Shown here piece by piece: positions 30,051 through 58,613 of a stretch of 64,000 bases of DNA. The DNA comes from Chitinophagaceae bacterium (GTDB lineage: Bacteria; Bacteroidota; Bacteroidia; Chitinophagales; Chitinophagaceae). The translations under genes and the position numbers were made by a program. The notes under the pieces are model-generated. The model saw only the letters and a list, made by a program, of their open reading frames with translations. It had not been told where the DNA came from and searched no databases. Where the stretch lies: contig JAMLHK010000011.1 of assembly GCA_023957155.1 (NCBI GenBank), forward strand, positions 1 through 64,000, given 5' to 3'. Position 1 is the first letter of the stretch. Each line of letters begins with the position of its first letter.

Positions 30051-30091
30051 GATAAATATTATAGCCGGTTATTTATTACAGGTGGCAGTGC

Positions 30092-30385
30092 GCGCATTTC
30101 AAATTTTCGCCGATTGGTGGTGACACTATCGCCGTCAACCTAATAAATCTAAGTGCTCAGATACCCCGGATGGGGTTTAATTTGAATAGCCATCGGTGTA
30201 ACCGATGATATATTTGTGCATTTTTACATTGAACCCCTACGGGGTTCAACAAAAACTTCGACATTTTGCCCCCCAACAAAGTTGGGGGCTATTCAAATTA
30301 AAGCCCTCCGGGCTTAAGTTGACGGCTATGGTGGTGACACCAACCGGTGTCTCACCGCCCACGAGATAGAAAATTTGAAATGCGC
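30092..30385. repeat. nested inverted-repeat element with 17-bp terminal inverted repeats
   Basis: GCGCATTTCAAATTTTC (30092-30108) and its exact reverse complement (30369-30385) bound 294 bases made almost entirely of smaller inverted repeats. One is a 15-base pair of arms, 30177-30191 with 30287-30301. Hairpins lie at 30163-30176 (ACCCC/GGGGT), 30192-30206 (ATCGGT/ACCGAT), 30231-30247 (GAACCCC/GGGGTTC), 30268-30289 (GCCCCC.AAC/GTTGGGGGC) and 30302-30316 (AAGCCC/GGGCTT). It encodes no protein. It looks like a MITE-like or other short mobile palindromic element, or a folded RNA, in the gap between rhaT and the mutarotase-like gene. Confidence 0.75.
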
Positions 30386-30417
30386 CCATTGGCAGGTTGT
30401 ATTAAAAGACCACACAA

Positions 30418-31374: not shown

Positions 31375-31381
31375 TGCTCAG

Positions 31382-31702
31382 TTATTGTAAGTGAAAAACT
31401 TCCGTTAGCATTTCTTCTTTGGCTTTCGTGCTGCTTTCATTTTCACATTCTAAAAACGAAGTCATCAATAACCACCATCGCCGGCATACCTCCTGCTCAG
31501 CGAGCTTTTCAAAAAGCGCTTCGTCTTCCACCTCGAGGTAGCCGAAAAGTTGTTGTGAGCCTTCCCTGTAAAAAATGGAATAGTTGGTAACCCCATGCCG
31601 TTGGAGTTGTTCCTTCAGTTCCGGCCATATAGGGTTGTGGTGACGAATATATTCCTCTATCTTCCCCTCTTTAGCATGAATTACAAAGGCTTTCCTGATC
31701 AT
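31382..31702 (-). CDS. rhaM: L-rhamnose mutarotase
   Basis: 106 residues of the dimeric alpha-beta RhaM fold. RKAFVIHAKEGKIEEYIRHH at the start, then NPIWPELKEQLQRHGVTNYS and a Trp pair near residue 76 (CRRWWLLM) match the family, including the His and Trp residues that line the sugar site. It interconverts alpha- and beta-L-rhamnose in the cytoplasm. The start codon overlaps the deacetylase stop by four bases (ATGA), which indicates translational coupling. The end is slightly atypical, since Bacteroidota RhaM usually ends in EVFHL after a short loop and here a Q follows. Confidence 0.9.
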   Translation of the reverse strand: MIRKAFVIHAKEGKIEEYIRHHNPIWPELKEQLQRHGVTNYSIFYREGSQQLFGYLEVEDEALFEKLAEQEVCRRWWLLMTSFLECENESSTKAKEEMLTEVFHLQ

Positions 31703-32628
31703 GTGCTCATTTTGTTTTCTTTAAATTCCCGTGCCAGCTCACCGGCTGTTATAAAGCGTCCTCCGCGATCAAGCAATAAACCACACAGGGCATCAAGCTC
31801 TGCAATGGCTTTGGGACCGCAGTTTTCCACTATAAAGGGTAGGGGAGTAACCATACATTCCCCGAAATCCATTGCTCCCTGCGGCATTGGGTAAAATTCC
31901 CAGGGATGAAAATAAAAGCAGAGCACAGGTCTTTCCCCTTTATTCCGCACATAGCGCAAAAAACTATCTGCCTTTTCCATTACAGCGGTGGCAGACTTTG
32001 TTCTGAAGAGCGGCCATTGATCGCGATCGCGCTGAAAGGGATCATTACTTTCCATTTCCAGGTCGCAGAAGTTGGGGATCTCCACAATGTTCATTGTGCC
32101 TTTTTTTGTCCAGTCCTTTGCGGAAGGATGGTATGGAACAACTGGCTCTCCGTAATAATAAAGCGGTAAAGAAGCGTCTGAGATATAACCCAGCAACTCC
32201 AGCACATTCACTACCTGTGTGCTGCCCCATAGCCGGGGACAACGGAAACTTACCGGTTGCTCACCAATGATATCTTCGATAATACGGGTGGCATCTTTTA
32301 ACCTTCCCTCCACTTCATACGGGAGTATCGGCCAGTTATTGGGCAGGGGAAAGATGGGATCTCCAAGCGTTTCATGGAGCAGCCCGTGACAACCTGTTTC
32401 ATGCCCGGCGCCTTTTACTTTCTTTACCATTTCCGGATTGTGCATCGCAGCATGACCTGTCCAGTAAAAAGTTGCGGGAATATTGTGCTTCTTCAGAATA
32501 TCAAGTATAGGATCCGTGCCCTTCTGCACACCTTCATAGAAGGTGGTATAGGAGCCGATATCAGTTTCCATGTCGAAGCCCAGCACAATATCAAATGGCG
32601 TAGTATTTTTAACTTGTAATTGATCCAT
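31699..32628 (-). CDS. NodB-type polysaccharide deacetylase-family protein
   Basis: 309 residues, no signal peptide. NodB-domain motifs are visible: IVLGFDMETDIGSY (catalytic/metal Asp19 and Asp23), GAGHETGCHGLLHE (metal His81 and His85), VSFRCPRLWGST (Arg-containing motif 3) and LCFYFHPWEF near the end. Metal-dependent deacetylases of this kind remove N- or O-acetyl groups, and a cytoplasmic group works on small amides (allantoinase-like). Lacking a signal, this one probably acts on an imported product. It is coupled to rhaM (4-base overlap) and starts 10 bases after the M24 enzyme. The substrate may be an N-acyl compound coming from the glycan. Confidence 0.75.
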   Translation of the reverse strand: MDQLQVKNTTPFDIVLGFDMETDIGSYTTFYEGVQKGTDPILDILKKHNIPATFYWTGHAAMHNPEMVKKVKGAGHETGCHGLLHETLGDPIFPLPNNWPILPYEVEGRLKDATRIIEDIIGEQPVSFRCPRLWGSTQVVNVLELLGYISDASLPLYYYGEPVVPYHPSAKDWTKKGTMNIVEIPNFCDLEMESNDPFQRDRDQWPLFRTKSATAVMEKADSFLRYVRNKGERPVLCFYFHPWEFYPMPQGAMDFGECMVTPLPFIVENCGPKAIAELDALCGLLLDRGGRFITAGELAREFKENKMST

Positions 32629-32638
32629 AACTTCTCTT

Positions 32639-33808
32639 TTAATGATCCATAAAATGAGCGTCCATCCGGGGGCTTAAAGGAATAACACCACCATCCGTAA
32701 CCTCGTAACCGGTTTCTATGCGTAAGCCATGAAACTCGGGATGTCCGAAAAAGCTGATGTCAACACATATCATCATACCGGGTTGCAGTACATCGTTGCT
32801 GTGAGGTCCGAAAAAAGGAGATTCGGCTTCGTGCAAGCCAATGGTATGCACAAAGGGACAGACCAGGTATTGCGACAGGTTCTGCTCTTCAAAATAAGCC
32901 CTTGCAGGGGCATCCAGTTCCTTCCCCGTTTTACCGACCTTTAAACCATCCCGAGTTCTCCTAAATGCCTCCTTCAGGTGATTCACTGCTATTTGCTGCC
33001 TATCCGTATACTTTCCCGAAACAGGAAACACATCTCCCACCACACCCGCATACCCGTTTACTTTGGGAGAGATGCCGATCATTACCAGCTCACTGTCTTC
33101 CAGTACTTTTGAACTGGCTGTAGGCACCACGGCGTTAGAACGTGCGCCGCTGCCCACGATCGTGCCGAACCCAAAGCCGCTGGCACCCCGGCTTCTTACG
33201 GCGTATTCACCTGCTGCTGCTACTTCAATCTCGGATACTCCTTTTGTTGTTTTTGCTTTCATGGCGTCATAGGCATCATCGGCGAGCTTGAATGCAGCGC
33301 GGATCTGCGCTCTTTCCCATTCCGACTTTATATAACGCAGCTGCACGAACGCCTCGGTAATGTCTACCAGCTCAACTCCGCTGAAGCCTTCCACTATTTG
33401 CTGGTAACCTGCGGCAGGCATTCGCCCTGCACCTACCAGCCCAACACGTTTGATATTACCGAGCCTGCCGGTAAGCTCTTCAAATAATTTTTTAAAATCA
33501 ATGATCGTAGCGTTGGGGTACTCTTCATCAGGTACCATAAATACTGTGAAGTTCCTCGTTTCGGTGATCATGCTGTCTAACTTCGCGAAAGGCTCGCTTT
33601 CCGGCCCTCCCAGTATCATAGGTGCTCCCTGCCTGGGTACCAGCACTGCACCGCTTTCAAACTGCGGGCACCAGCCTGTGAGGTACCAGCCGTTGCCGAT
33701 ATTAAATTCATCATAATACACTAATGCAATATCCAGGTTGTTTGCAGCTAATAATTGCTGTACTTTCTCTATCCTGGCTGCTGATTCTGACTTAATTAAA
33801 TAGGCCAT
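32639..33808 (-). CDS. M24-family (creatinase/prolidase-like) enzyme with an incomplete metal site
   Basis: 389 residues: N-terminal creatinase-N domain (about 1-150) and pita-bread domain (about 160-380). Only some of the five metal ligands of M24 peptidases are found. The His is in VHTIGLHEAESP and the last Glu in LRIETGYEV. The second Asp is in VVGDVF. The first Asp position holds Gly in LVMIGISPKV, and the second-last Glu is Asp in ICVDISF. Creatinases of this fold work without metal, so a C-N hydrolase acting on a small guanidino or amide compound is more likely than an aminopeptidase. It heads a tight block with the deacetylase, rhaM and a mutarotase-like gene. Confidence 0.8.
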   Translation of the reverse strand: MAYLIKSESAARIEKVQQLLAANNLDIALVYYDEFNIGNGWYLTGWCPQFESGAVLVPRQGAPMILGGPESEPFAKLDSMITETRNFTVFMVPDEEYPNATIIDFKKLFEELTGRLGNIKRVGLVGAGRMPAAGYQQIVEGFSGVELVDITEAFVQLRYIKSEWERAQIRAAFKLADDAYDAMKAKTTKGVSEIEVAAAGEYAVRSRGASGFGFGTIVGSGARSNAVVPTASSKVLEDSELVMIGISPKVNGYAGVVGDVFPVSGKYTDRQQIAVNHLKEAFRRTRDGLKVGKTGKELDAPARAYFEEQNLSQYLVCPFVHTIGLHEAESPFFGPHSNDVLQPGMMICVDISFFGHPEFHGLRIETGYEVTDGGVIPLSPRMDAHFMDH

Positions 33809-45372: not shown

Positions 45373-46758
45373 CTAATCTCTAAACAATCCATTCAATAAC
45401 CTGGCGGCTGTTTCAACAATTTTGTACCCTGCATATGGCTCCAGCCTGCACCACGAAATGGGAGCTCCGGTATAACCGCCTCCAAGTATACCATAAATAG
45501 TGGGGCAATACCCGCCATGCCCGTCTGTAAGCCCGACAACAGCGGTGGTTGAAGCCGGGCTGCGGCGTTTGATATCAAGCCCAAACTGACAGTATAGTTC
45601 GCACGGTTGGGTCACTATTGCCAGTTCTCCTATGCGAATAGCATGTACCGGCAATATCTCAAAGGGGCTACTGGTATAAAGTTCCTGCAAACGGATAGCT
45701 CCGTATGCCAGGATAGTTTCCATTACGCCAACATTTTCTCCTTTATCAACGCGTGCCAATGTGCTTCGTCCATCAATTAACTGTTCAACGGATGCTGAAC
45801 GAAGGGCAACTTTTAAATCATGATAGTCATGCTTTAGCACCGGGTTATCATCATAGGTTACATTTTTGTATAGCTCCATGGTTTTGTTAACCACCAGTTC
45901 GCTGACTCTTTTCAATTTTTCTTCCGGCGTTTCCGGCTGACGGCCAAGCATATTTTCAATGGAAATATCTCCCTGGGCCCCATTCAGGAAAAGTACCGGG
46001 AGGTCGCTGCTAATCCTGTTGCGGATCATCTTTCTTACTTCTCCCGGAAAATCTGCGGAATATATGCCCGCACCGTAAAAAATGGTGGGATGCGTTGTGT
46101 TGTTGTATAAAACAGCTAAGAGTTTGCCTTTCAGGTCTGAAGCAAACATGGCTAAATGCTGTGGATCAACCGGCCCTTCCAACCCGGCAAAGTCTTTTCT
46201 TTTAGTATCACCGTGCATGGTATGCGTACCGTCTGCCCAGGTCACCCGGCGGTTGAACCCGACCTGCGCTTCCCCTTTCGCCCACCCGATCTTTCCCGGC
46301 CGTGCAGCTTTTACGGCTTCTGAAGCCAGATCCACCATCCATTGCTGAAGGCGCTCCATATAGGCTGTATCCACCGGCATTATATAATTTGTTCTTAGCA
46401 GGGATGGACCTGCATGGGTATGTGTGCAGGATATTAATATATTGCGCGGAGCAATACCGGAAGCAACTCCCATAGCTTCTCTCAGCCGGGCAACAAAGGA
46501 AGATTCAAGCCCCACCAGGTCGCAACTGACCATTAATAACCGGAATGTTCCTTTTGAGAAATACATCGCGTTTGCTTCCAGGTTATCCCGGATTTGGGTG
46601 GCCCTGCGGAGGGTACCCGCCCCCTGCACATAATTTCCTACTTCATTATTGATTATCCTGGTGGCGACGCCTATCTTAAATACTTCCGGCTGTGCAATAC
46701 CCAAATGTGAAAGCAATAAAAAAAAGAAAATCAACAATGCAGTGCAATACTTGTTCAT
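45373..46758 (-). CDS. neutral/alkaline ceramidase-like protein (N-terminal domain only)
   Basis: 461 residues, signal peptide ending GIAQ. It matches the N-terminal catalytic domain of neutral ceramidases: CTHTHAGPSLL (zinc-binding His pair), NNTTHPTIFYG and FLNGAQGDIS, with the conserved GVATRIINNEVGNYVQGAG start. Classical ceramidases have a further C-terminal Ig-like domain, absent here, and many Bacteroidota relatives in sugar loci of this kind have unknown substrates. It should be a periplasmic Zn-dependent amidase or hydrolase. Position between a sulfatase (53 bases) and the esterase ties it to the sugar locus. Activity on ceramide is not implied. Confidence 0.8.
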   Translation of the reverse strand: MNKYCTALLIFFFLLLSHLGIAQPEVFKIGVATRIINNEVGNYVQGAGTLRRATQIRDNLEANAMYFSKGTFRLLMVSCDLVGLESSFVARLREAMGVASGIAPRNILISCTHTHAGPSLLRTNYIMPVDTAYMERLQQWMVDLASEAVKAARPGKIGWAKGEAQVGFNRRVTWADGTHTMHGDTKRKDFAGLEGPVDPQHLAMFASDLKGKLLAVLYNNTTHPTIFYGAGIYSADFPGEVRKMIRNRISSDLPVLFLNGAQGDISIENMLGRQPETPEEKLKRVSELVVNKTMELYKNVTYDDNPVLKHDYHDLKVALRSASVEQLIDGRSTLARVDKGENVGVMETILAYGAIRLQELYTSSPFEILPVHAIRIGELAIVTQPCELYCQFGLDIKRRSPASTTAVVGLTDGHGGYCPTIYGILGGGYTGAPISWCRLEPYAGYKIVETAARLLNGLFRD

Positions 46759-46811: not shown

Positions 46812-48290
46812 TCATGGAATAGAGATGCTATCACGTGCTTTCAAATGCCTGGCCAGTTTTTCATGAAGTTCTTTTACCAGCTTTTGGTTTTCGGGGTTAT
46901 TCGCCACATTTATGTTCTCTTCAGGATCTGTACGATGGTCATACAGCATGCGGGCATAAGGCTGCCCCGTTTTGTTGTTGACCCATTCGGTATAAGCATG
47001 TGTTTTTGTCAAAATAGTTTCCCCGGCGCCGGCTCTGTAAAAAATGTATTCTTTCCCGGGAGCGGATGGATTATCAAGAAGAGGTGTGAGACTTTTTCCC
47101 TGCAGATGGACCGGCAGGCTTAATCCGGCCAGTTCACAAAGCGTCGGGTAAATATCCACGAACTCAACTAATGCAGAAGTATGGGCATCTCCGTTTTTCC
47201 AGGGTACCTTTACAATTAAAGGCGCATGGGGGCCTTTTTCCATATTGCTTTGCTTTGTCCAGAAACCATGTTCTCCAAGGAACCACCCGTGATCTCCCAA
47301 AAGCACCACTATTGTGTTTTCTGAAAGCCCAAGCTCTTCCAGTGCATTTAACACCCTGCCAACCTGTGCATCAACATAACTTACACAAGCATAGTAGCCA
47401 TGGATGAGATTGATCGCAGTGCTATCGGGCAAAGGGCCGGAGGCAGGAATACCATAAAAAAATCTTAGTTCAGCCCAATTAAGCCTTGCTATATCCGGGG
47501 CGTCTTTTGGAAAAAAATAATTCGGAGGCAGCTTAATATCTTTCTTTTTATACAGGTCCCAATATTTTTTGGGGGCATTGAATGGAAGGTGGGGCTTTTT
47601 AAATCCCACTGCAAGAAAAAAAGGCTCGCCGTTGTTGCTGAAGTTTTGTAACTCTTCAACAGCGCGGTTTGCAATGCTGCCATCCTCATAGCTGATGTCA
47701 GGAATATCAGGATCCTCATAGGCAGGTCCTCTCTGAGGCAGGTTATTATTATCACGAACATGTGTGTCTTTATACCGCTCTTTGTTTCTTTCTTCAAAAA
47801 CCCGGATGCTTTCTTTTGATTGATAATCCCAGTTAACAGCGGGCGGGCGCCAGCTTTTCACCCAGCTTCCTTTCCCATCGTTAAAATTATTGTACACCTT
47901 GCCTAAAGAAACCGTTTGGTAATTATTATTTTTAAAATGCATTGGCAGGCTTACAATTCCCGGAACATCTTTATCCTGTGACGCATTCCAAACGTTAAAT
48001 CTGTTGGTGCCCGGATAGATTCCACTTAATAAAGAAGCTCTGGATGGCCCGCAAACCGGGTAATTGGCAAAAGCATTATTGAAAACGATACCAGTTATAG
48101 CCAGGCGGTCAATATTAGGAGATTTGACCTGCTCGTTGCCGTAGCAGCCGAGTTCCGGCCTGAGGTCATCTACCACTATAAAAAGAATATTCGGCCGGTT
48201 TGGTTTTAAAGGCTTTTCCTGTGCAAAAACGAAAGATGTAAACATAAATACACCTGTCAGCAAAAACAACTTACTTATATTCATATGCAT
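46812..48290 (-). CDS. sulfatase of the iduronate-2-sulfatase-like type
   Basis: 492 residues with a signal peptide ending VFAQ. Sulfatase motifs: NILFIVVDDLRPELGCYG (metal Asp41-Asp42), formylglycine motif C-G-P-S-R at Cys80 (NYPVCGPSRASLLSG), VGFKKPHLPFNAPKKYWD and VVLLGDHGWFLGEHGFWTK. These features are those of the iduronate-2-sulfatase-like S1 subgroup, which removes sulfate from uronic acids or related sugars. Its motif (CGPSR) differs from the other sulfatase of the window (CSPYR), so two different sulfate positions are probably hydrolysed. It sits 118 bases after the aldolase gene. Confidence 0.93.
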   Translation of the reverse strand: MHMNISKLFLLTGVFMFTSFVFAQEKPLKPNRPNILFIVVDDLRPELGCYGNEQVKSPNIDRLAITGIVFNNAFANYPVCGPSRASLLSGIYPGTNRFNVWNASQDKDVPGIVSLPMHFKNNNYQTVSLGKVYNNFNDGKGSWVKSWRPPAVNWDYQSKESIRVFEERNKERYKDTHVRDNNNLPQRGPAYEDPDIPDISYEDGSIANRAVEELQNFSNNGEPFFLAVGFKKPHLPFNAPKKYWDLYKKKDIKLPPNYFFPKDAPDIARLNWAELRFFYGIPASGPLPDSTAINLIHGYYACVSYVDAQVGRVLNALEELGLSENTIVVLLGDHGWFLGEHGFWTKQSNMEKGPHAPLIVKVPWKNGDAHTSALVEFVDIYPTLCELAGLSLPVHLQGKSLTPLLDNPSAPGKEYIFYRAGAGETILTKTHAYTEWVNNKTGQPYARMLYDHRTDPEENINVANNPENQKLVKELHEKLARHLKARDSISIP

Positions 48291-48408: not shown

Positions 48409-49275
48409 TTACAACACCCTGTTTGCATCTTTTGCCTGCTTATCGTGGAGTAGAGTTTCCAGACTGGTTTCTACAGGCATATTATCATGCACTATACTCA
48501 TCAGCACTCTCGTAATGAGGGCCGGATTCGCATGCTGAATTATATTACGCCCATAAACAATTCCACTCGCTCCCTGCTCCATTAGTTTTGCCGTGCGGAC
48601 AATAATTGCTTCATCATTGGCTTTACTCCCTCCTCTTACCAAGACAGGGGTGGTGCCGGCAATTTCAATAACACGATAGTAGTCATTAATATCATTGGTT
48701 GGATCAGCTTTGATAATATCTGCTCCCAACTCAACTGCCTGCCTTACCAGGGGTAATATTTTTTTTATATCACCATCTACCATATAGCCTCCTTTTTCAA
48801 TATTGGGTCTAAACACGAGCGGCTCTATCATCAGGGGCATACTGTAAAGATCCGATTCCACTTTTAATTTCAAAATATTGTCAATACATTGCGCTGTTAC
48901 TTCCGGCGCCCCGGGAATGCTAAACAAATTCACACACAAACAAACGGCATCGGCACGTACAGCCTGGAGTACAGCCCGGCTGATCATTTTGCTGAAAGCG
49001 AATGCGGGCAGGGAAGGTCCATAAACATTCGCAACATCGGTACGCAGCACAAGAGAAGGCTTTTGCTTTCCTGGTATTGACTGTAAATATTTCAACTGCC
49101 CCACGGTCAATTGAACGGCATCGGGTCCTGCCTTAACAATGGTTTCAACTGCAGATTTGATATTTTCTATTCCCTGCAAAAAATTCGCCTCATTGAAAAA
49201 GCCATGGTCTATGGCAACATCAAAACATTTGTTTGAAGCAGGATTAAAAAGCCTGTTGAGCCTGTATTGTTTCAA
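48409..49275 (-). CDS. DhnA-type class I aldolase
   Basis: 288 residues of the DeoC/FbaB/LsrF (PF01791) barrel family. The start (KCFDVAIDHGFF) is the typical DhnA motif with the Asp-His pair. The Schiff-base Lys is Lys189 in GADIIKADPT, and the phosphate site is GGSKANDEAI and ASGIVYGRNIIQ. Such enzymes split a ketose phosphate into two pieces, usually dihydroxyacetone phosphate and an aldehyde, without metal. The gene is the last of the block isomerase-like, PfkB kinase, aminotransferase, aldolase (spacers 9, 9 and 21 bases), so it should cleave the phosphorylated ketose made by the first two. No direct indication tells which aldehyde arises. Confidence 0.85.
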   Translation of the reverse strand: MKQYRLNRLFNPASNKCFDVAIDHGFFNEANFLQGIENIKSAVETIVKAGPDAVQLTVGQLKYLQSIPGKQKPSLVLRTDVANVYGPSLPAFAFSKMISRAVLQAVRADAVCLCVNLFSIPGAPEVTAQCIDNILKLKVESDLYSMPLMIEPLVFRPNIEKGGYMVDGDIKKILPLVRQAVELGADIIKADPTNDINDYYRVIEIAGTTPVLVRGGSKANDEAIIVRTAKLMEQGASGIVYGRNIIQHANPALITRVLMSIVHDNMPVETSLETLLHDKQAKDANRVL

Positions 49276-49296
49276 GGGAAAAGTTATTTTAAGTTA

Positions 49297-50682
49297 TTAT
49301 CTGTATCCAAATTCATTTTCTACTTCCGAAATCGCCTCTTCAATAATATCCATCCCCATTTTTGCATATTTTTCATCCATAATAAGTGGTGGAGACATGC
49401 GAAGAATGTGCCCTGCTGGAATCCAGGCCAATCCTTTCCGGAAAGCTTTCTGATATACAAGATTTCCGGCTTCGGGAAATGGTTCCTTTGTGCCTTTACC
49501 TTTTACCAGTTCAATACCCAGCAAAAATCCTTTGCCTTTAACGTCCCCGATAATGGGGTGCTCTTCTTTCATCTTTTTCATTCGCGCCATAAAAAAATTG
49601 CCAACGGAACGGACATTTTCCAGGATATTTTCATCTTCGATCACTTCAATAGACGCCAGGGCTGCGGCACAAGCCATGGGATTGCCTCCATAACTGGATG
49701 AGGCGGAGATCTTTTCAAGCGCTCCTCCGTTTTCTTCGCTCACCACCATGGCAGTAACCGGGAAGCCATTGCCAAACGATTTGCCAAAGGTCACGATATC
49801 AGGGATTACCTTCCAGTGGTTTAAGGTAAGCCATTCGCCGGTACGGCCCATCCCGGCCAATACTTCGTCATCGTACAGGAGAATACAATGCTTTTCACAT
49901 AAGGATTTTAATTTAGGGAAGAAATCATCTGGCGGGAATATACTCCCCGCCCAACCCTGAGCAGGCTCCAAAACAAATGCGGCAACGTTGCCTACGGTTC
50001 CTTCAATCAAAAATTGTTCGTAAAAACGGATATAAGCATCTGTATCAATAGTCCCATCTGTTTTGCACCAAAGCGGACGATAGGGATCGGGGCGCGGAAC
50101 CATATAAAAACCCGCGGCTCTTGTTGGTCCATAACTGAATGTTTCCCCCCGGTACATTTGTGCACAGCTTACCGCACCCATCGTTTTCCCGTGAAAATCG
50201 CGATAAGCTGAAATAAATTCATGTTTACCGCTGATAGCCCGCGCCGCACGGATGGCTGCTTCTACGGCGGTAGTTCCATCGGAATACAGTTGAATGGCAT
50301 TTAACTTTCCCGGTAAAATGGAAGCCATCTTTTCCATTAGCTTTTCCTTAACGGGAGTGGAAAAATCATGCACATTCATGAGCTTTTTTGCCCAATGGGA
50401 AACAGCCTCTGATATTTTAGGGTGGCCGTGCCCTAAAGAAGCCACATAGATACCCGATGAGAAATCAAGGTATTTATTTCCATCCACATCCGTTAAAGTA
50501 ATGCCCGATCCTTCTTCGAAACAAACAGGGAACAATTTTACCTGGGAGCTGAGCCCTTTTATATACCTGGCGGTATTGGCATGCATGATCCGCGATTTTG
50601 GGCCAGGCGTTTCAGTGATCAGCCGGGGAATGTTCGCAGCGCTTTCTTTCCACCAGTCTGTAGCTGTATTTAATTTATTCAT
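49297..50682 (-). CDS. class III aminotransferase (aspartate aminotransferase family)
   Basis: 461 residues. All class III features are intact: GNKYLDFSSGIYVASLGHGH, YSDGTTAVEAAIRAAR for PLP phosphate, RDFHGKTMGA, Asp271-Asp272 (LLYDDEVLAGMGRTGEWL) and Lys301 (VTFGKSFGNGFP). Family members transfer amino groups of omega-amines, beta- or gamma-amino acids, or amino sugars to keto acids. It is placed between the PfkB kinase (9 bases) and the aldolase (21 bases), an unusual partner for a catabolic sugar kinase. It may remove the amino group from an amino-sugar fragment or aminate the aldehyde from the aldolase. Substrate unknown. Confidence 0.88.
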   Translation of the reverse strand: MNKLNTATDWWKESAANIPRLITETPGPKSRIMHANTARYIKGLSSQVKLFPVCFEEGSGITLTDVDGNKYLDFSSGIYVASLGHGHPKISEAVSHWAKKLMNVHDFSTPVKEKLMEKMASILPGKLNAIQLYSDGTTAVEAAIRAARAISGKHEFISAYRDFHGKTMGAVSCAQMYRGETFSYGPTRAAGFYMVPRPDPYRPLWCKTDGTIDTDAYIRFYEQFLIEGTVGNVAAFVLEPAQGWAGSIFPPDDFFPKLKSLCEKHCILLYDDEVLAGMGRTGEWLTLNHWKVIPDIVTFGKSFGNGFPVTAMVVSEENGGALEKISASSSYGGNPMACAAALASIEVIEDENILENVRSVGNFFMARMKKMKEEHPIIGDVKGKGFLLGIELVKGKGTKEPFPEAGNLVYQKAFRKGLAWIPAGHILRMSPPLIMDEKYAKMGMDIIEEAISEVENEFGYR

Positions 50683-50691
50683 AGTAATTTT

Positions 50692-51888
50692 TTAGAGACT
50701 TCTCCATTCATTAGCAGCCATTTCCATGTCTGGCAAATCATTGTATTTAGCCAGTTTTAGATTGCTTATTTTCACCGATACCGATTTCAACTCTTCCCGC
50801 ATCTGCGCCCAGTCGTCCAACTCCCTGTAGATATCTGTGCAATACAGGCAGTTTCTGCCGGCCATGGCAGCGTATTTCAAAGAATGCTCGAGGTCTTCTC
50901 CATCGAGGATCGCTGCCAGAAATGCTGCCGATGCGGTATCACCTGCTCCCGAGGCATTTTTTACTTTTGCTGTATCAATCGGGAAGGCATTGCACCAGAG
51001 CTCCTGGTCATTCCATCTTTCCTTTTGGAAATTGAAGCTTGCTTTTTCATTTAGGGATGTTACATCTCCCGTTAACAGATAAGCCCCCCGATGACCTGCT
51101 TTTATGAATGCAATTTTAACCCCGGCATCAATTATCCGTTTCCCGATCTCCCGGATGGTCGGGATGGTAACCAAATCAATAATATTGGCATTACCGGAAG
51201 TCAATTGTATTGCGGCGTATTCATCGGGCATCATTATTTGCAGCGCCTCTTCGAGGCTGGGAACAAAAATATCGGTATATGGCAATACCCGCTTTATGAT
51301 CTCCGGCCAGTTTATTTTACCTGATTCACTTTCGGGGTCGGGCAGGCTGAGATCGAGCGAAGTAACGACATCCATTCCCTGTATCACAGAAAATAATTCA
51401 ATCAATTGGGCGCCTTCATTCAGATAAAACTGTTTTAACAGTGGAGGATAGCCGAAATGAAACAACCTGCTTTGTGCTACAACATCGAAATCAATATGCC
51501 TTATATCAAATAAGTGACTGCAGCCCGGCGATTCGAGAAAAATGCGGTCAATACCCGGAGGCGCAATTACAAATCCAAAAGCTGTTCCTTCGCCTTTCAT
51601 TACTTTCACGCCGGTTACCATATCAGCATGGTTCAAATACATCAGGGCGATCTTTCCGATTAGATCATCCCCGATCAATCCATTCAGAAAAACATTTTTA
51701 GAGAATCTTTTCATGACCATCCCCATATTTGCCACAGCGCCTCCCAGTGTATAACTGAGTCCGTCAATTTCTATTAGTTTGCCTGGCTTTAAAAGTTCGG
51801 AAATATTACCGACCGGTTTATCCTTTTTAAACTCAGGGACCAGGTCAACGCAGATGTATCCCGCAATAACAATATCATATTTCTTCAT
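50692..51888 (-). CDS. PfkB-family carbohydrate kinase
   Basis: 398 residues of the ribokinase/PfkB fold, longer than the usual 300-330. The N-terminal substrate half (VIAGYICVDLVPEF, LGGAVANMGMVMKRF, GLIGDD) and the ATP half with GAGDTASAAFLAAIL (catalytic Asp317, anion hole Gly314-Gly316) are present. Extra residues lie near 20-45 and at the C-terminus (about 350-398, NLKLAKYNDLPDMEMAANEW). It phosphorylates a sugar with ATP in the cytoplasm. It is coupled to the FucI/AraA-like gene (9 bases) and the aminotransferase (9 bases). A ketose made by the isomerase is its probable substrate. Confidence 0.88.
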   Translation of the reverse strand: MKKYDIVIAGYICVDLVPEFKKDKPVGNISELLKPGKLIEIDGLSYTLGGAVANMGMVMKRFSKNVFLNGLIGDDLIGKIALMYLNHADMVTGVKVMKGEGTAFGFVIAPPGIDRIFLESPGCSHLFDIRHIDFDVVAQSRLFHFGYPPLLKQFYLNEGAQLIELFSVIQGMDVVTSLDLSLPDPESESGKINWPEIIKRVLPYTDIFVPSLEEALQIMMPDEYAAIQLTSGNANIIDLVTIPTIREIGKRIIDAGVKIAFIKAGHRGAYLLTGDVTSLNEKASFNFQKERWNDQELWCNAFPIDTAKVKNASGAGDTASAAFLAAILDGEDLEHSLKYAAMAGRNCLYCTDIYRELDDWAQMREELKSVSVKISNLKLAKYNDLPDMEMAANEWRSL

Positions 51889-51897
51889 ATTCCGCGG

Positions 51898-53268
51898 TTA
51901 TACTACGTTGATGTTTTTTAAATAGCAAAAATCTGTCAGCTCCCGGATGTGATTTCCGTAAACAATGATGTAGTGCTGCCCCGAAATTTTCTGGGCAAAC
52001 TCTTCCACGGGAGTATCAAGGAATATCTCAAGGCTCGGGAGTTGGGGTGCCGGCTGATCCCATCCTGCTTCCTCCCAGGGTCTAAACCTCCCTTCTCCCG
52101 TACATATATGCATCGTATATTGGTTTGCGGTATTGGAAAGCCTTGCTATTGTAAGCGGGCCGGCCTTAATATCTGAAATATTTAGCAACCCGCCGCTTAT
52201 CCCGCCAAATGCTGCCCGGGTAACTTTTACTTTTCCATTCACAATTTCAGAAGGAACAAAATCGGGCACCCCCATCAGCACACTCTCTTCAAAAAACTCA
52301 TAAAATTCCAGATAAGCGGCACATTGCCCGGTAAGATGTTTAACAACCAATTGGGTAACAGCACCCATTACATCGTTTTCGGGAATGGTGCATAATTTCA
52401 TTTCATCAGAAAGAAGCATGAAGATTAACGCAGGAGGAAAATTCAGGATTTTTTTCATCCCATCCACATCTTTTAGCGAGATGGCATCAAAATGATTATT
52501 TTCAGTGATTTTCTTAATGGCGAGGTAATAGGCAATTCCCTTTTTCAAAAAGTCATCGTCAACGGGTTTAATAAAATTCCACTGCTGTTTAATTTTTTGG
52601 CATAAGCTCAGCACTTCTTCTTCTGCAACGCTTTCACTCAGTTGAAGCATTTCCAGCATTTCAAAAAATTCTACTTCTGTACCAAGGGTAGCTTTTAAGG
52701 AAATTCCTTCATAAAGCGTATTGTATAGTTTCATGTCGCGAAATCCCATCATTCCAACTTTCGTATTTTCAATTGATCTTACAGCGGATGCTGCGAGTCC
52801 AAAACTTTTTATTTTTTCCAGGGGAGAAGGTTTTCCAAAGGTGTTATAAATGTACCGGAACTTATATCCAAGATCATCAAATACTTTCCGGAGTGCAGTT
52901 GTACCGGCCTGCGCTGCCGCTGTTACCATGCGTCCGTTTTCCATATACCCTGTAAGCCCCCACAAGATCATTGGCTTGTCTTTAAATTCATTTGTAATGG
53001 AAATAACAGCATGGGATGGGATCCAGCCGGCAAGGCAAATAATCAGCACATCGAAGTCTTCTTTTTCGAAGTGTCTTATCGCCCGCTTAACGTCAAGCCC
53101 TTTAGGGTCATCTGTAATTACTTCGGTTGTTATTACTTCAAATCCCAGAGACCTTATTTCCTCCAACGCTCTTGAACAACTCTCCCTAATTAATTGCATA
53201 GGAGAATTCACTTCTCCAAATCCTGCAAATGCTGCACTAACAGGTACCTTTTTAATTGTCATTGACAT
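51898..53268 (-). CDS. L-fucose/L-arabinose isomerase-family-like protein
   Basis: 456 residues. The N-terminal half resembles FucI/AraA domains (SPMQLIRESCSRALEEIRSL, LIICLAGWIPSHAV, ILWGLTGYMENGRMV) and the C-terminal half ends in the family-like SGQHYIIVYGNHIRELTDFC. In this superfamily a His in a GHxG-like loop binds the metal; here the corresponding loop reads LMGVPDFVPSEIV, so the His seems to be missing, and the acidic residues at 335-345 (YLEFYEFFEES) may be atypical too. It should act on an aldose before the PfkB kinase (9-base spacer), but the chemistry may differ from canonical isomerisation. The start could also be the second Met (two codons later). Confidence 0.75.
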   Translation of the reverse strand: MSMTIKKVPVSAAFAGFGEVNSPMQLIRESCSRALEEIRSLGFEVITTEVITDDPKGLDVKRAIRHFEKEDFDVLIICLAGWIPSHAVISITNEFKDKPMILWGLTGYMENGRMVTAAAQAGTTALRKVFDDLGYKFRYIYNTFGKPSPLEKIKSFGLAASAVRSIENTKVGMMGFRDMKLYNTLYEGISLKATLGTEVEFFEMLEMLQLSESVAEEEVLSLCQKIKQQWNFIKPVDDDFLKKGIAYYLAIKKITENNHFDAISLKDVDGMKKILNFPPALIFMLLSDEMKLCTIPENDVMGAVTQLVVKHLTGQCAAYLEFYEFFEESVLMGVPDFVPSEIVNGKVKVTRAAFGGISGGLLNISDIKAGPLTIARLSNTANQYTMHICTGEGRFRPWEEAGWDQPAPQLPSLEIFLDTPVEEFAQKISGQHYIIVYGNHIRELTDFCYLKNINVV

Positions 53269-53364: not shown

Positions 53365-54564
53365 TTACACTCCTGTTTTACTGACGTTTACATTATTAAC
53401 AATTGCCACACACAGCAAATAGAGGACAGATAAAACAGGCACAATAAAAGCAATTTGGATAGAGAAGCTGTCGGCAACCATCCCCATCACGGGAGGAATA
53501 AAGGCACCTCCTATAATGGCCGATACCATCAAACCTGACAACGCATTGGTGTGGCCAGGCATGTAGTCTATGGTTATCGAAAATATAAGCGGGAAAATAT
53601 TTGCAAATCCAAGCCCTACAAAAAAAATCCCAAGTAGCGTCAAAACAAATGAATTACTGAAAATCAAACCAAACCCGATAAGCGAGAGCAAAACGGTGAG
53701 CAGCAACAGCCGTTTCGGCGTTATTCGCGACATAATCCATGAGCCCAAAAATCTTCCCGACAGTATGGGTAGGTAAAAAAGCGACCAACTGATCAGTAAT
53801 CCCATCTTCTCTACGGAAACGTTGAACTTCTCTTTTAGCAGTATAGGCACATGAGCGCTCATCGCTATTTCAACGCCGCAATAAATGAAAATTCCCGCGA
53901 CCATTATGAATATATAGCCATTTTTAAGTAACCTGAGGCATGATCTGAAAGTTGCATGGTTTTCTGTGCTGTCACTTCTCTCCCTGATCCGGATACTATT
54001 TATCCATATAATACCGATCAAAACAATTCCGGCAAAAATTGGGAATAATATACTCCAATCCAGTCCAAAGGCATGAAACATGACAACAGGCAGGAGGAAG
54101 CCCAACGAAGATCCAATGGTAATGAAGGATTGTGCCAACGAAAGATTTTTGGAATATTGGCCTGCTTCAGAAATATCCCGCATAACAGGATTCCCCGAAA
54201 CCTGGAGGATCGCACCTCCTGCCCCTAACAGGAGGATGGCTGCTAAGATTTTATAAAATTGCATTAAGGAGCTGCTGTCAACCACCATTTTTCCAAACAT
54301 GCCCGATACAATTGGGATTATGAGCCCGGTAAGGGCTATTGACAGACCAAGGTTCATGATGAATTTTTTCCCCTTTTTGTCTTGTAACAACCCTATCGGT
54401 ACAGACAGCAAACCATACATGATGTATCCCAACATAGGCAGCAGCGAGGCCATGGTAGTTGATATTTTAAACGATTCTTTGGCCAGGCTAACCATTGGCC
54501 CTACCGAATCAATCAAACCCATAGCCAGAAAGATCAAATAAACCGGAAACGTCTTTATTTTCAT
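53365..54564 (-). CDS. MFS sugar transporter (FucP-like)
   Basis: 399 residues with 12 hydrophobic segments of the major facilitator superfamily. LSVPIGLLQDKKGKKFIMNL (loop 2-3), GAGGAILQVSGNPVMRDISE and FVGLGFANIFPLIFSITIDY are characteristic of the FucP/sugar-MFS group. It likely imports an oligosaccharide or monosaccharide with protons across the inner membrane, feeding the isomerase-kinase-aldolase block that starts 96 bases downstream. It differs from the RhaT symporter in the same locus, so the two should take up different sugars. Confidence 0.88.
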   Translation of the reverse strand: MKIKTFPVYLIFLAMGLIDSVGPMVSLAKESFKISTTMASLLPMLGYIMYGLLSVPIGLLQDKKGKKFIMNLGLSIALTGLIIPIVSGMFGKMVVDSSSLMQFYKILAAILLLGAGGAILQVSGNPVMRDISEAGQYSKNLSLAQSFITIGSSLGFLLPVVMFHAFGLDWSILFPIFAGIVLIGIIWINSIRIRERSDSTENHATFRSCLRLLKNGYIFIMVAGIFIYCGVEIAMSAHVPILLKEKFNVSVEKMGLLISWSLFYLPILSGRFLGSWIMSRITPKRLLLLTVLLSLIGFGLIFSNSFVLTLLGIFFVGLGFANIFPLIFSITIDYMPGHTNALSGLMVSAIIGGAFIPPVMGMVADSFSIQIAFIVPVLSVLYLLCVAIVNNVNVSKTGV

Positions 54565-54919: not shown

Positions 54920-57202
54920 TTATTTCTCTAACCGGTTAAGGAGATAGTTGCAATTGATGACTTTTTCAACGAGGTCCTGTTGAACGTAATAATATTGATT
55001 TGAAGCTTCATAACCAATCCGGGAATCTTTTCCGCATAGTTCAAACAGCTCTGAAGCAAGCTGTATTTCATGGTTCAGTATACGGCGTATTTCTTCCCGG
55101 ATCTTACTTTTAGCCGGTGAGGAAAGATCGTTTGCTAACAGTTTGTCTCTGTTAATAATATAAGCGGTTTGATTGGCAACCGAAGCAAAATGTAAATATG
55201 CCGCTTTAGCAATATTCTCATCAGATATAGCGATGGTTCGGTGCGAACTGTCGGACGCAGCAACTGCCTGCTTAAAGTATTTAAGCCCGTTCATCCAGCC
55301 ATCTGCAACTTTCCTGAACTGCTCCATAAAGACGTTCGCAGGATACGCACCCTTCCAGCTTTGCAGGTCATCATATGGAAATCCGACCATTGTAGCCTTG
55401 TATCCTGTTGGTTGTTCATATAGCAAATTCGCGGGCCCATATTGCTGAGGTGCGGTATATAATGTTTGACCTCCATATGGGAATTGCTCAAATGCATTGC
55501 TGAATGCGGTCCATGCCTTACGCGCTGCATTTACAGCACGCTTTCCATATCTTTCTTCGGCAAGGGTGTTTAACAATTCGTCTTTTGAAAGCTCCGGGTT
55601 ATTTGAGATGCGATCCGTGATTTTCAGGTTGGGAGAAGGATAGCCTCCGAGAGACCAGCTTAACATTAACCCGTCGGTTTTTGCATCTGAAAGCGCTGAT
55701 ATATGACGCACAACAAGATCAGGTACAGGCAACCAGGGAACGGACGAAAGTTCCCATGTATTATTTACCTGCACTTTGGCAATTGTCTTCAACCCTCTCT
55801 CTTTTGCCCATTTCCAGTGTTGCAGGGCCCGTGGGCCAGGGCCCACTGCAGACATGGAGTATTCGCCAACTTCCGATATTACACCCCCACGGTCAATTGA
55901 TTTCGCCCACTCGCTCACAGACATAAGATACACAGAATGTGGCAAAGCAGCGATTACATCGGGGGCAAGCCCGTGGTTATGCCATCCCCAGTCCCATACC
56001 ATTACTTTAGCATCAGGATTGCCTTTATGAACCCCCTCTTCTATTATGCGATTTACCTCCGCAATAATTTCAGCATAGCTCCGCCTGCTGCATCGCTCGC
56101 AGCTCTTTTGATTTCCATGTGATGCGCAATTGGTGAAATTTTCCGAAGCCGTTATGGTCAGTACGCCTCCCAACCCGGGCACATTTGAAAAAACATATGC
56201 TAAGGCATCCCTGATCCATTGTTGAACTTCCCCGCTGCTGGTGCACATGGCATAATAGTTCCCTTCTTTTGCACCTCTCATCTGATCCCTGTTAATAAAA
56301 AAAGCAGCATCCATTGCTCTCGGCTCATTAATGTACAGATAAATATCTATGCCGTATCGCCTGGCCCGCTCAACGATCCTGTTTAGATTTTGAATGCGTA
56401 ACGTATGACCCGCCCCAAATTCGGGAAATGCGGTACCGCCCGGAGCGATCTGGTTTAAAACCACGTGCATCCATATACCATTAATTCCACTTTGAGCCAG
56501 CTTTTCCAGTAAACCATCGGGATACAGATCCTGTAAGGTATCGGAAAGAGGGTCACCGTAAATACTAAAATATGAATAAACGATTTTTGGACTTTTATCC
56601 TTATCAGGCTGATAAACACTTTCTGCTTCTTTTCCGGAAGGATACCTTAAATCTTCAATGAATTGAAACGGGGTAAAAGCGCTTTGCCCGCGGAAATACC
56701 TTTGAGCAACGCGTTGTATGTTTGATGCACCCCTGATTGTATTTTTATCCGGGGCGGTGTACCTCAGCTCCTCAATCTCTGGCTTTAGATTTCCAAGCTT
56801 GATGAACAAACCATCGTCTTCCTTTAAGGCGACAGACAGCTCTTTACTGCTCATGTTAAGTAGCGTAAGCAGTTGAGAATAGGGCAATAAATGCCAATTC
56901 CTTCTTATTACAGTTATATATATACGCCGATCAAAGTCAGCGTCCTTAGGCTGATAGGGCGGGAGTCCCATCGAGGATGCAATTTTAATAATATCGGAAG
57001 CATTGCATCCTACTGTTTTACCCATTGTTCCGGGACTAACCAGATTCCAGTTTCTCCATACAAAAGCGTGTAGTCTGTCGGGGAAATGTGGTACCGGTAT
57101 AGCCTGTGGATGGCTCCCTAAAGGCAGTGATCCCTCCTGGCCTAAAGAGACCTTACAGCACAGCAACCCAAGAATCATTAAAAAAGAAATCGTTTTTTTC
57201 AT
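54920..57202 (-). CDS. large secreted putative glycosidase (GH20/DUF4838-like barrel)
   Basis: 760 residues from MKKTISFLMILG, the Met that opens a signal peptide ending KVSLGQ; earlier in-frame Mets make a non-signal extension. An N-terminal domain (about 25-230) is followed by a TIM-barrel-like region (about 230-560: SGINGIWMHVVLNQIAPGG, RARRYGIDIYLYINEPRAMD, AKVMVWDWGWHNHGL) and a helical C-terminal domain. The segment TITASENFTNC, then KSCERCSR, places a Glu close to a Cys cluster as in DUF4838-type proteins related to GH20 hexosaminidases. An exo-acting enzyme on an N-acetylhexosamine or uronic acid is plausible. It follows the GH109-like gene after 49 bases. Family not assigned. Confidence 0.65.
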   Translation of the reverse strand: MKKTISFLMILGLLCCKVSLGQEGSLPLGSHPQAIPVPHFPDRLHAFVWRNWNLVSPGTMGKTVGCNASDIIKIASSMGLPPYQPKDADFDRRIYITVIRRNWHLLPYSQLLTLLNMSSKELSVALKEDDGLFIKLGNLKPEIEELRYTAPDKNTIRGASNIQRVAQRYFRGQSAFTPFQFIEDLRYPSGKEAESVYQPDKDKSPKIVYSYFSIYGDPLSDTLQDLYPDGLLEKLAQSGINGIWMHVVLNQIAPGGTAFPEFGAGHTLRIQNLNRIVERARRYGIDIYLYINEPRAMDAAFFINRDQMRGAKEGNYYAMCTSSGEVQQWIRDALAYVFSNVPGLGGVLTITASENFTNCASHGNQKSCERCSRRSYAEIIAEVNRIIEEGVHKGNPDAKVMVWDWGWHNHGLAPDVIAALPHSVYLMSVSEWAKSIDRGGVISEVGEYSMSAVGPGPRALQHWKWAKERGLKTIAKVQVNNTWELSSVPWLPVPDLVVRHISALSDAKTDGLMLSWSLGGYPSPNLKITDRISNNPELSKDELLNTLAEERYGKRAVNAARKAWTAFSNAFEQFPYGGQTLYTAPQQYGPANLLYEQPTGYKATMVGFPYDDLQSWKGAYPANVFMEQFRKVADGWMNGLKYFKQAVAASDSSHRTIAISDENIAKAAYLHFASVANQTAYIINRDKLLANDLSSPAKSKIREEIRRILNHEIQLASELFELCGKDSRIGYEASNQYYYVQQDLVEKVINCNYLLNRLEK

Positions 57203-57251
57203 AACAAACATTTTAATCTCATTGAGACCTTCTCCATGCAGGCAGATCATT

Positions 57252-58613
57252 TCAGATGGAAAAGTCATCCTGCAGCCCGAATACAGGTTTTCTACTCTTC
57301 CATTTTCCTCTTGTAAAGTCGGGTACTAAAACCGGCTGTGATCCTTTCGCTATGGATCTTTCCGAGAGCGGGCGCAGTACCGACCACATAGCTGCATCAT
57401 ATACATCCATCAAAAAGGGTTTCCTGTTGATCACACAATCTACAAACTCTCTGATTATAAAATAGTCCATGCCTCCATGCCCAGAAGATTCTGCTTTAGC
57501 TCCATATTTTTTCCAGTAAGGATGATCGTACCCGCTGAAATATTTTGCTGCGGGCTCATATTGGTGGGCATGGGGTGAATGTTTCTGAAGATAGATTCCG
57601 TTAGCATCTTCCGTCCAGATACCATCGCTGCCCTGTATACGAAAGCCCAGGGAATAGGGTCTGGGGGAACAGGTATCAAAAGTCATTTTTATTATCTCCC
57701 CGTTTATGCATTTAATCAGGCTGGTAACTACGTCCCCGCATTTGAATTTTACTTTGGCATTGGGATGGGAAGCTCCCCCGTTTTCAACAATATACTGATG
57801 TAATCCTATAGCGGGGGAAGCCATGGATACCAGTTGTGCAAATTGGTTTCCCCGAGTGATATTTAAAATATTGGATACCGGCCCTACGCCATGTGTAGGA
57901 TACATATCCCCATTATTTGTTACATAATGCGGCGTTCTCCACTTTGCTTCATTAATTCCTTTTTCCCCGAATTCAACACCATGTCCGGTCATGTGCTGTC
58001 CATCATTGAATAAGACCTCTCTCAGGTCATGCTGATACCCGCATTCCGTGTAAGTAATGTTACCAAACAGATTTTTTCTTGCCATGTTCAATACTGCCAT
58101 TACGTCCCTCCTGTAACAAACATTCTCCATCATCATATAGGGAGTATTGGTTTTTTCCTGCAAATTTACCAGCTCCCATATTTCCGGTACGGTTAATCCG
58201 GCCATTACCTCGCAACCTGTATGCTTTCCGGCTTTCAGGCTTGCAAGAGACATCGGTAAATGCCATTCCCACGGAGTGGCTATAATTACAGCGTCTACAT
58301 CATCTCTTATCACAATCCTTTCAAAGTCATTTTCTTTCAGGTAATAATCCGGTTCTCCTGATCCGGCATCTTTAATGATCTGCTTTGCACTATTAATGGC
58401 AATCTCATTAATGTCGCTAATAGCTACTATTTCACTATACCCCTGTGATACGGCTTCTTTCAGCAAACCGCTCCCTCTCATGCCTACGCCGATAAACGCA
58501 AGCCTGGCCTTTGGCAATTGCTTTTTTGTTGCCGTTAATATTATTTTATCCTGAAAGACTGCAGCTCCGGCCCCAATAATAGCGGCATGGGCTATGAATT
58601 CTCCTCTGTTCAT
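57252..58613 (-). CDS. GH109-like Gfo/Idh/MocA protein (NAD-dependent glycosidase type)
   Basis: 453 residues: an NAD-binding Rossmann part (about 37-160, IGVGMRGSGL and ATPWEWHLPMSLASLKAGKH) and the GH109-type C-terminal domain with MMMENVCYRRDVMAVLNMAR, YTECGYQHDLREVLF and MYPTHGVGPVS. GH109 enzymes cleave alpha-N-acetylgalactosaminides and related glycosides using tightly bound NAD by an oxidation-elimination path. Most carry a Tat signal; here the N-terminus (MNRGEFIAHAAIIGAGAA) lacks the twin Arg, so export is doubtful unless this is read as a degenerate signal. Position next to a GH20-like candidate favours amino-sugar release. Confidence 0.78.
   Translation of the reverse strand: MNRGEFIAHAAIIGAGAAVFQDKIILTATKKQLPKARLAFIGVGMRGSGLLKEAVSQGYSEIVAISDINEIAINSAKQIIKDAGSGEPDYYLKENDFERIVIRDDVDAVIIATPWEWHLPMSLASLKAGKHTGCEVMAGLTVPEIWELVNLQEKTNTPYMMMENVCYRRDVMAVLNMARKNLFGNITYTECGYQHDLREVLFNDGQHMTGHGVEFGEKGINEAKWRTPHYVTNNGDMYPTHGVGPVSNILNITRGNQFAQLVSMASPAIGLHQYIVENGGASHPNAKVKFKCGDVVTSLIKCINGEIIKMTFDTCSPRPYSLGFRIQGSDGIWTEDANGIYLQKHSPHAHQYEPAAKYFSGYDHPYWKKYGAKAESSGHGGMDYFIIREFVDCVINRKPFLMDVYDAAMWSVLRPLSERSIAKGSQPVLVPDFTRGKWKSRKPVFGLQDDFSI

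What the first reader, a model, noticed from the sequence alone, without database searches (positions are those of the whole stretch)
48409..53268. Unassigned sugar route: FucI/AraA-like protein, PfkB kinase, class III aminotransferase and DhnA-type aldolase in one block
Four genes with spacers of 9, 9 and 21 bases encode, in transcription order, an isomerase-family protein, a PfkB kinase, an aminotransferase and a class I aldolase, next to a FucP-like transporter. Isomerase, kinase and aldolase together form a complete ketose-phosphate cleavage route. The aminotransferase in the middle is not part of known fucose, rhamnose, arabinose or sulfoquinovose pathways as I know them. The isomerase-like protein seems to lack the metal-binding His of its superfamily. 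Together these suggest an undescribed pathway, perhaps for an amino or otherwise modified sugar.
Basis: partly seen in the sequence, partly recalled or inferred. Interest (0 to 1): 0.8.

Follow-up and report, generated by a model that had tools for sequence, protein, structure and literature searches.

The report
Undescribed sugar route with aminotransferase
This bacterium carries a tightly conserved set of genes, shared in part with gut bacteria, that looks like a complete but undescribed way to use an unusual sugar, probably one carrying nitrogen.

Summary
The four genes are real, in the stated order, with gaps of 9, 9 and 21 bases. Their catalytic residues are intact. In a 394-genome family sample the isomerase is in 11 genomes, the aminotransferase in 13 and the aldolase in 15; all 11 isomerase genomes hold all three. 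All 12 loci in these genomes carry the four genes plus a fifth: a neutral-ceramidase-like hydrolase (fold). The isomerase has 196 relatives; of 79 loci read, 59 also hold a ceramidase-like gene, including gut Clostridia with another kinase.

The missing metal-binding His is not confirmed: E297, E321 and H432 match the fucose-isomerase triad. One relative keeps the regulator, transporter and ceramidase-like gene but follows them with a dehydrogenase, a sugar-acid dehydratase and another class III aminotransferase.

Best reading: catabolism of an N-acylated amino-aldose, with isomerase, kinase and aldolase yielding DHAP plus an aldehyde. The cleavage core is well supported; the amino-sugar part is inference, and the aminotransferase is missing from most Clostridia. 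The substrate is unknown. Nine searches of an open-licence library found no description.

The parts
51898..53268 (-). ISO: FucI/AraA-fold aldose-ketose isomerase; probable metal ligands E297, E321, H432
50692..51888 (-). PFKB: PfkB-family sugar kinase, Asp317 of GAGD; probably phosphorylates the ketose (inferred)
   Evidence: PF00294 77.4 bits, cut-off 25.8; D317 in 25 of 25
49297..50682 (-). AT3: class III aminotransferase, PLP Lys301, Arg428
   Evidence: PF00202 302.7 bits, cut-off 30.5; K301 and R428 in 26 of 26
48409..49275 (-). ALDO: DhnA/DeoC-type class I aldolase, Lys189; probable ketose-1-phosphate aldolase (inferred)
   Evidence: PF01791 109.3 bits, cut-off 23.8; aligned to MJ0400; K189 in 20 of 20
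53365..54564 (-). FucP-like MFS transporter, entry of the sugar in this locus type (inferred)
   Evidence: PF07690 120.5 bits; TIGR00885 73.9 against cut-off 280.4; in place in the 5 type A loci
45373..46758 (-). CERase: neutral-ceramidase-like hydrolase with a hydrophobic N-terminus (by eye); type B loci have a distant homologue, CERaseB, without one
46812..48290 (-). sulfatase, in place in the 5 type A loci; may free the substrate from a sulfated glycan (inferred)
   Evidence: PF00884 150.2 bits
54920..57268 (-). W782: 782 aa conserved protein, possible glycosidase, without Pfam, NCBIfam or PDB match
   Evidence: in the 5 type A loci
57252..58613 (-). GH109-like Gfo/Idh protein; accessory, absent from L028
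   Evidence: PF21252 265.7 bits
58733..61650 (-). M19 dipeptidase, 3HCDH-type dehydrogenase, SDR; accessory, role unknown
   Evidence: same order in L038-L041
61805..62833 (+). divergent LacI-family regulator, likely regulator of the - strand genes (inferred)
   Evidence: PF00356 44.7 bits; same place in L038-L041
38200..43243 (-). SusD- and SusC-family outer-membrane pair downstream
   Evidence: PF07980 157.3 bits, TIGR04056 817.7 bits; neighbours in L028, L029, L031

Best explanation
A catabolic cassette for an aldose that arrives with an acyl-protected nitrogen. Shown: isomerase, kinase, aminotransferase and aldolase are intact members of their superfamilies and are inherited together in this family, and a ceramidase-like gene is a steady partner. 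Inferred mechanism: (1) the ceramidase-like hydrolase removes the acyl group, outside the cytoplasm in loci like this one and inside in the other type, so before the isomerase; (2) the aldose enters by the FucP-like or XylE-like transporter; (3) ISO converts aldose to ketose with a FucI-type metal site; (4) PFKB phosphorylates the ketose, probably at C1; (5) ALDO cleaves it through a Schiff base to DHAP and an aldehyde; (6) AT3 removes the nitrogen, either from the sugar before step 3 (with a Gfo/Idh protein in relatives) or from the nitrogen-bearing fragment after step 5. C2 and C3 should carry free hydroxyls, because one route is isomerisation and the route in L149 looks like oxidation plus sugar-acid dehydration; the nitrogen would then sit at C4 to C6.
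Against: Outside Bacteroidota-labelled loci only 7 of 44 ISO genomes searched (of 56 such loci) have AT3 at E<=1e-90, so the nitrogen step is not universal. Of 6 loci from other phyla only 1 has CER within six genes. Window CERase and CERaseB are only 25-27% identical and may differ in substrate, which weakens the two-sides-of-the-membrane argument. A ceramidase fold does not prove an amidase; it could cut esters. Class III enzymes usually act on primary amines or amino acids (recalled). In L146, L148 and L123 no class III aminotransferase was labelled (L122 has one), so ALDO often works without AT3. The L149 argument rests on one locus. NagA and NagB neighbours may serve ordinary GlcNAc. No substrate, growth or expression data.
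Confidence: 0.45

Rival explanations
1. The sugar is neutral or a uronic acid, the ceramidase-like protein is an esterase, and AT3 works downstream on the three-carbon fragment, for example between tartronate semialdehyde or hydroxypyruvate and an amino acid.
For: A glycerate kinase gene follows CER and a GH39 gene in Pedobacter L059, so glycerate may be an end product; esterase and sulfatase genes lie in the locus; AT3 is missing in most of the Clostridia genomes searched that have ISO.
Against: The L149 route, with the same entry genes but no ISO or ALDO, again has a class III aminotransferase and an M81 gene. NagA, NagB-like and PIG-L neighbours in relatives.
Confidence: 0.25
2. An ordinary fucose-, arabinose- or rhamnose-type operon with a hitch-hiking aminotransferase.
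For: FucI/AraA fold and FucP-like transporter; RhaT-family transporter in the window; rhamnosidase-family genes near ISO in L049 and L079.
Against: Against the window, AT3 is the most conserved of the four proteins in 10 of 11 loci (82-97%; PFKB 52-94%; in L028 ISO is higher), and AT3 is inherited with ISO; ISO is far below the AraA cut-off (19.6 against 622 bits) and 11-16% identical to solved AraA and FucI chains.
Confidence: 0.12
3. A sulfosugar route, since the best named relative of ISO is the sulfoquinovose isomerase SftI, with AT3 acting on a sulfonated fragment.
For: SftI is the top NCBIfam hit for ISO (49.6 bits) and for a Clostridia ISO (47.9 bits); sulfatases in the locus.
Against: 49.6 bits against a cut-off of 700; no sulfolactaldehyde, sulfolactate or sulfonate gene was named among the window genes searched (not every gene was searched).
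Confidence: 0.07
4. A lipid (ceramide or glycosphingolipid) route, with the ceramidase-like enzyme a true ceramidase.
Against: CERase 26.0 and CERaseB 21.5 bits against 32.1 for PF04734, and CERase 24.1 against 1200 for NF041649; no sphingosine kinase or lyase was named among the genes searched; ISO, kinase and aldolase would have no role.
Confidence: 0.03

Closest known systems
L-fucose / L-rhamnose type pathway (FucI-FucK-FucA, FucP; pathway recalled)
   Same: isomerase, kinase, aldolase logic giving DHAP plus an aldehyde; FucI fold and metal triad; FucP-like transporter
   Different: kinase is PfkB, aldolase is class I DhnA-type, plus aminotransferase and ceramidase-like hydrolase; ISO 11-16% identical to solved AraA/FucI chains
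Sulfoquinovose isomerase SftI and the sulfo-TAL pathway (pathway recalled)
   Same: nearest named isomerase model; 14 of 49 Clostridia-labelled ISO loci also have a TAL/FSA-family gene
   Different: 49.6 against cut-off 700; kinases and, here, an aminotransferase present
DhnA-type aldolases: MJ0400 (ADH synthase), LsrF, archaeal FBP aldolase
   Same: family and aligned lysine
   Different: 125.2 against 241, 100.7 against 297, 87 against 430 bits: member of none of these functional families
GlcNAc / galactosamine catabolism (NagA-NagB, Aga)
   Same: deacylation, deamination, kinase and aldolase steps; NagA and NagB-like genes sit in relatives
   Different: no NagA or NagB next to the four genes here; a ceramidase-like hydrolase and a PLP aminotransferase instead (roles inferred)
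Neutral ceramidase
   Different: shorter, often without signal-like N-terminus, embedded in sugar operons, below family cut-offs
Kanosamine pair NtdC-NtdA (recalled)
   Same: a Gfo/Idh dehydrogenase paired with an aminotransferase, as AT3-Gfo/Idh in Bacteroidales, Clostridia and Chloroflexi
   Different: biosynthetic; NtdA is from another aminotransferase class

Membership tests
FucI/AraA isomerase superfamily | fold | tested here: met
FucI/AraA isomerase superfamily | metal ligands Glu, Asp/Glu, His of FucI (E337, D361, H528 in E. coli, recalled) | tested here: met
   E297, E321, H432 align with E, D, H of the FucI of L067 (FucI model 983.2 bits, cut-off 775) in two alignments; invariant in 50 of 50 ISO
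L-arabinose isomerase AraA | curated model score | tested here: not met
   PRK02929 19.6 bits, cut-off 622
Sulfoquinovose isomerase SftI | curated model score | tested here: not met
   49.6 bits, cut-off 700
PfkB kinases | family score and GAGD catalytic Asp | tested here: met
   77.4 bits, cut-off 25.8; D317 in 25 of 25
Class III aminotransferases | family score, PLP Lys, carboxylate-binding Arg (role recalled) | tested here: met
   302.7 bits, cut-off 30.5; K301, R428 in 26 of 26
DhnA/DeoC class I aldolases | family score and Schiff-base Lys (role recalled) | tested here: met
   109.3 bits, cut-off 23.8; K189 in 20 of 20
Neutral ceramidase | fold and zinc motif, tested on CERaseB | tested here: met
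Neutral ceramidase | curated family score | tested here: not met
   PF04734 26.0 (window) and 21.5 (L016) against 32.1
Neutral ceramidase | hydrolysis of N-acylsphingosine | not testable with these tools
   no assay
L-fucose symporter FucP | curated model score | tested here: not met
   TIGR00885 73.9, cut-off 280.4

The most novel reading that the evidence does not exclude
An undescribed amino-sugar degradation system with parts in several phyla (ISO in Bacteroidota-, Clostridia-, Chloroflexi-, Spirochaetes- and Verrucomicrobia-labelled genomes): a ceramidase-fold zinc amidase de-N-acylates an amino-aldose with nitrogen at C4 to C6 (for example N-acyl 4-amino-4,6-dideoxyhexoses of bacterial surface glycans), a dedicated class III aminotransferase with or without a Gfo/Idh reductase removes the nitrogen, and a new branch of the FucI/AraA superfamily feeds the carbon into exchangeable kinase-aldolase modules.
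Probability: 0.3. Interest if true: 0.8.

Novelty: new variant of a known kind. Interest (0 to 1): 0.6.

Why it matters
The pathway logic (isomerise, phosphorylate, cleave) is known, but this combination was not described in the papers searched, and its parts recur in Chitinophagaceae, Pedobacter and ruminant-gut Clostridia (record titles). It gives a function-linked context to several poorly known families at once: ceramidase homologues in sugar operons, a new isomerase branch, a conserved aminotransferase, UPF0047 and two glycosidase-like families. Five proteins can be tested in one reconstitution, so the question is directly testable.

Tried and rejected
ISO lacking its metal His: rejected. 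AraA, SftI and FucP membership: not met on scores. Glycosidases as a clue to the sugar: W782 has no match; the 591 aa protein beside the second copy only weakly resembles N-terminal domains of GH67 and GH20, so no sugar could be named. Apiose was considered because a Rhizobium ALDO locus has a transketolase N-terminal protein and an FGGY-like kinase upstream of ALDO, Gfo/Idh and a lyxose-type isomerase (the link of transketolase halves with apiose comes from passages of PMC13001218, and from recall); those passages gave no link to ISO or AT3, so it was dropped. Plasmids: one weak ISO match, no CER match at the limits used. Paper searches gave listings with nothing describing this set; one search had no hits. 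Promoter-like sites 47 against 37.5 (sd 5.7) and terminator-like 14 against 17.5 (sd 4.0) in shuffles; not used. Ten class-sample genomes other than the window's own have weak ISO-like hits (E 1.4e-8 to 8.8e-4); they served only as outgroup rows. In one search two of those rows (L003, L004) were the wrong ORF through a slip of my script; one search repeats the alignment with the right ORFs (dropping L005, L008 and L010, which are shorter proteins) and gives the same triad. In one search two of the four Clostridia loci counted with AT3 (L105, L111) hold a 30% ArgD-like protein and are not AT3; L062 (Spirochaetes) has a 74% AT3 farther than six genes from ISO, and L068 a 60% AT3 piece at its contig end. 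The fold comparisons list only what Foldseek ranked highest. In one search at most four candidates per genome were scored, so CER counts are lower bounds.
Full report
1. Observation. The four ORFs are on the - strand at the stated places: isomerase-like ISO 51898-53268, PfkB kinase 50692-51888, class III aminotransferase AT3 49297-50682 and aldolase ALDO 48409-49275, with gaps of 9, 9 and 21 bases; a FucP-like transporter lies at 53365-54564. Pfam assigns AT3, PFKB and ALDO above cut-off and ISO below it. No NCBIfam model shown for the four reaches its cut-off (for AT3 the best 25 of 69 are shown), so none is called a plain known enzyme.

3. Is the set real? In the window's family (394 genomes drawn), ISO at E<=1e-20 is in 11, AT3 at E<=1e-130 in 13, ALDO at E<=1e-30 in 15; the 11 ISO genomes are in all three sets. 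Eight of the 11, the window's own included, are of one genus, so the count by genus is fairer: 3, 4 and 5 of 101 genera. G668, of the same genus, lacks all three at these limits. All 12 loci in these 11 genomes carry ISO, PFKB, AT3 and ALDO, and all carry a ceramidase-like gene. The window's genome has a second, diverged copy on contig C26 (ISO 68%, PFKB 57%, AT3 87%, ALDO 76%). Two layouts. Type A (window, L028-L031): FucP-ISO-PFKB-AT3-ALDO-sulfatase-CERase. Type B (L016, L032-L037): AraC-type regulator on the other strand, XylE-like transporter, ISO-PFKB-AT3-CERaseB-ALDO; in L037 the contig begins at ISO, so its transporter and regulator are not seen.

4. Beyond the family. A scan of genome contigs (two peptide patterns) found 196 ISO relatives and kept 80; 79 have an ISO gene in my ORF set. 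Taxon labels are the record titles. Within six genes and on the same strand, 24 Bacteroidota-labelled loci have PFKB in 23, CER in 23, AT3 in 21 and ALDO in 13; 49 Clostridia-labelled loci have an FGGY kinase in 35, CER in 34, UPF0047 in 22, a TIM in 18, a SIS protein in 16, a TAL/FSA protein in 14, and AT3 in 4, of which 2 are 30% ArgD-like and do not count; 6 loci of other phyla have PFKB, FGGY and CER in one each. CER is somewhere in 59 of 79 loci, a kinase of either kind in 60, both in 46. Many contigs end inside the locus, so these are lower bounds. Of 44 genomes searched (for 44 of the 56 loci not labelled Bacteroidota) 7 have AT3 at E<=1e-90: four Clostridia (90-100% to the query, from L101), two Chloroflexi (64%, 63%) and a Spirochaetes-labelled one (46%, a piece). 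L062, also Spirochaetes-labelled, has a 74% AT3 in its locus. Of 18 genomes searched for ALDO, 4 have it: L052, L059, L060 and L061, the last three Sphingobacteriaceae by name; 14, among them the Bacteroidales-labelled ones, do not. So inside this family the four are inseparable; across phyla the commoner core is ISO, kinase and CER.

6. What replaces what. Loci with ALDO but no ISO show ALDO, Gfo/Idh, a D-lyxose/D-mannose-type isomerase and PfkB (L121, and Thioclava plasmid L125 with a sugar ABC transporter), or NagB-like, PIG-L, ALDO, Gfo/Idh and PfkB (L122, L146, L148; NagB-like, PIG-L and ALDO at a contig end in L123; in L147 NagB-like and PIG-L lie near ALDO and Gfo/Idh, PfkB not seen; labels partly by similarity). 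So ALDO belongs to a ketose-phosphate route with exchangeable isomerases, often without AT3. Loci with AT3 and ALDO but no ISO (L118, L119) carry NagA (245.6 bits, above cut-off, in L118), NagB-like and CER; L118 also an FGGY kinase, L119 ends inside CER. AT3 pairs with a Gfo/Idh protein in Bacteroidales, Clostridia and Chloroflexi. In G591 (L149) the same AraC (70%), XylE-like (72%) and CER (58%) are followed by an SDR near sugar 1-dehydrogenases, an enolase-superfamily dehydratase near galactonate dehydratase, a HemL-like class III aminotransferase and an M81 protein. I read this as two routes for one substrate, both with an aminotransferase; it rests on one locus.

7. Mechanism. Well supported: aldose to ketose, phosphorylation, class I aldolase cleavage to DHAP and an aldehyde. 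Inferred: phosphorylation at C1, the hydrolase as N-deacylase, AT3 as the nitrogen-removing step, nitrogen at C4 to C6. A glycerate kinase gene after CER and a GH39 gene in Pedobacter L059 would fit a hexose with a three-carbon remainder.

8. Against this reading: AT3 is absent from most Clostridia searched; CER is absent near ISO in 5 of 6 loci of other phyla; ALDO often works without AT3; fold does not give specificity; NagA and NagB may serve ordinary GlcNAc; no substrate is known. Novelty: new variant of a known kind. I found no description in searches of an open-licence library; of papers I read only passages of PMC13001218, the rest as listings with abstract starts.

Noticed in passing
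L098 6602-13635; also L077, L097, L104: Clostridia loci join ISO and CER with FGGY kinase, TAL/FSA, archaeal-type TIM, KpsF/GutQ-like SIS and UPF0047; UPF0047 is within six genes in 22 of 49 Clostridia-labelled loci, a context for an orphan family.
   Followed up: partly
L149 4166-13068: Same AraC, XylE-like transporter and CER as type B loci but with SDR, sugar-acid dehydratase, HemL-like aminotransferase and M81 protein: a possible oxidative route.
   Followed up: partly
window 54920-57268: W782, a conserved 782 aa protein without Pfam, NCBIfam or PDB profile match; possibly a new glycosidase family.
   Followed up: partly
L016 17615-19390; also L033, L044, L049, L079: 591 aa protein with weak GH67/GH20 N-domain similarity, next to the second copy and in Clostridia L079.
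   Followed up: partly
L122 6544-12387, L146, L148: Recurring module NagB-like, PIG-L deacetylase, ALDO, Gfo/Idh, PfkB; in L146 a 3-keto-disaccharide hydrolase (PF06439) gene is close by.
   Followed up: partly
L125 9905-13582 (Thioclava plasmid p4): ALDO, Gfo/Idh, D-lyxose/D-mannose isomerase and PfkB in one run of genes with a sugar ABC transporter.
   Followed up: no
window 29001-33808: RhaT-family transporter, DUF6786, polysaccharide deacetylase and M24 creatinase-type peptidase further along the same strand.
   Followed up: no
L150 3555-7901: Three CER paralogues in a row in G668, which lacks ISO, AT3 and ALDO at the limits used.
   Followed up: no
L078, L085, L095, L097: M20 peptidase and CapA-like (PF09587) genes next to or near ISO in some Clostridia; L078 also has NagB-like and NagA genes downstream.
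   Followed up: no
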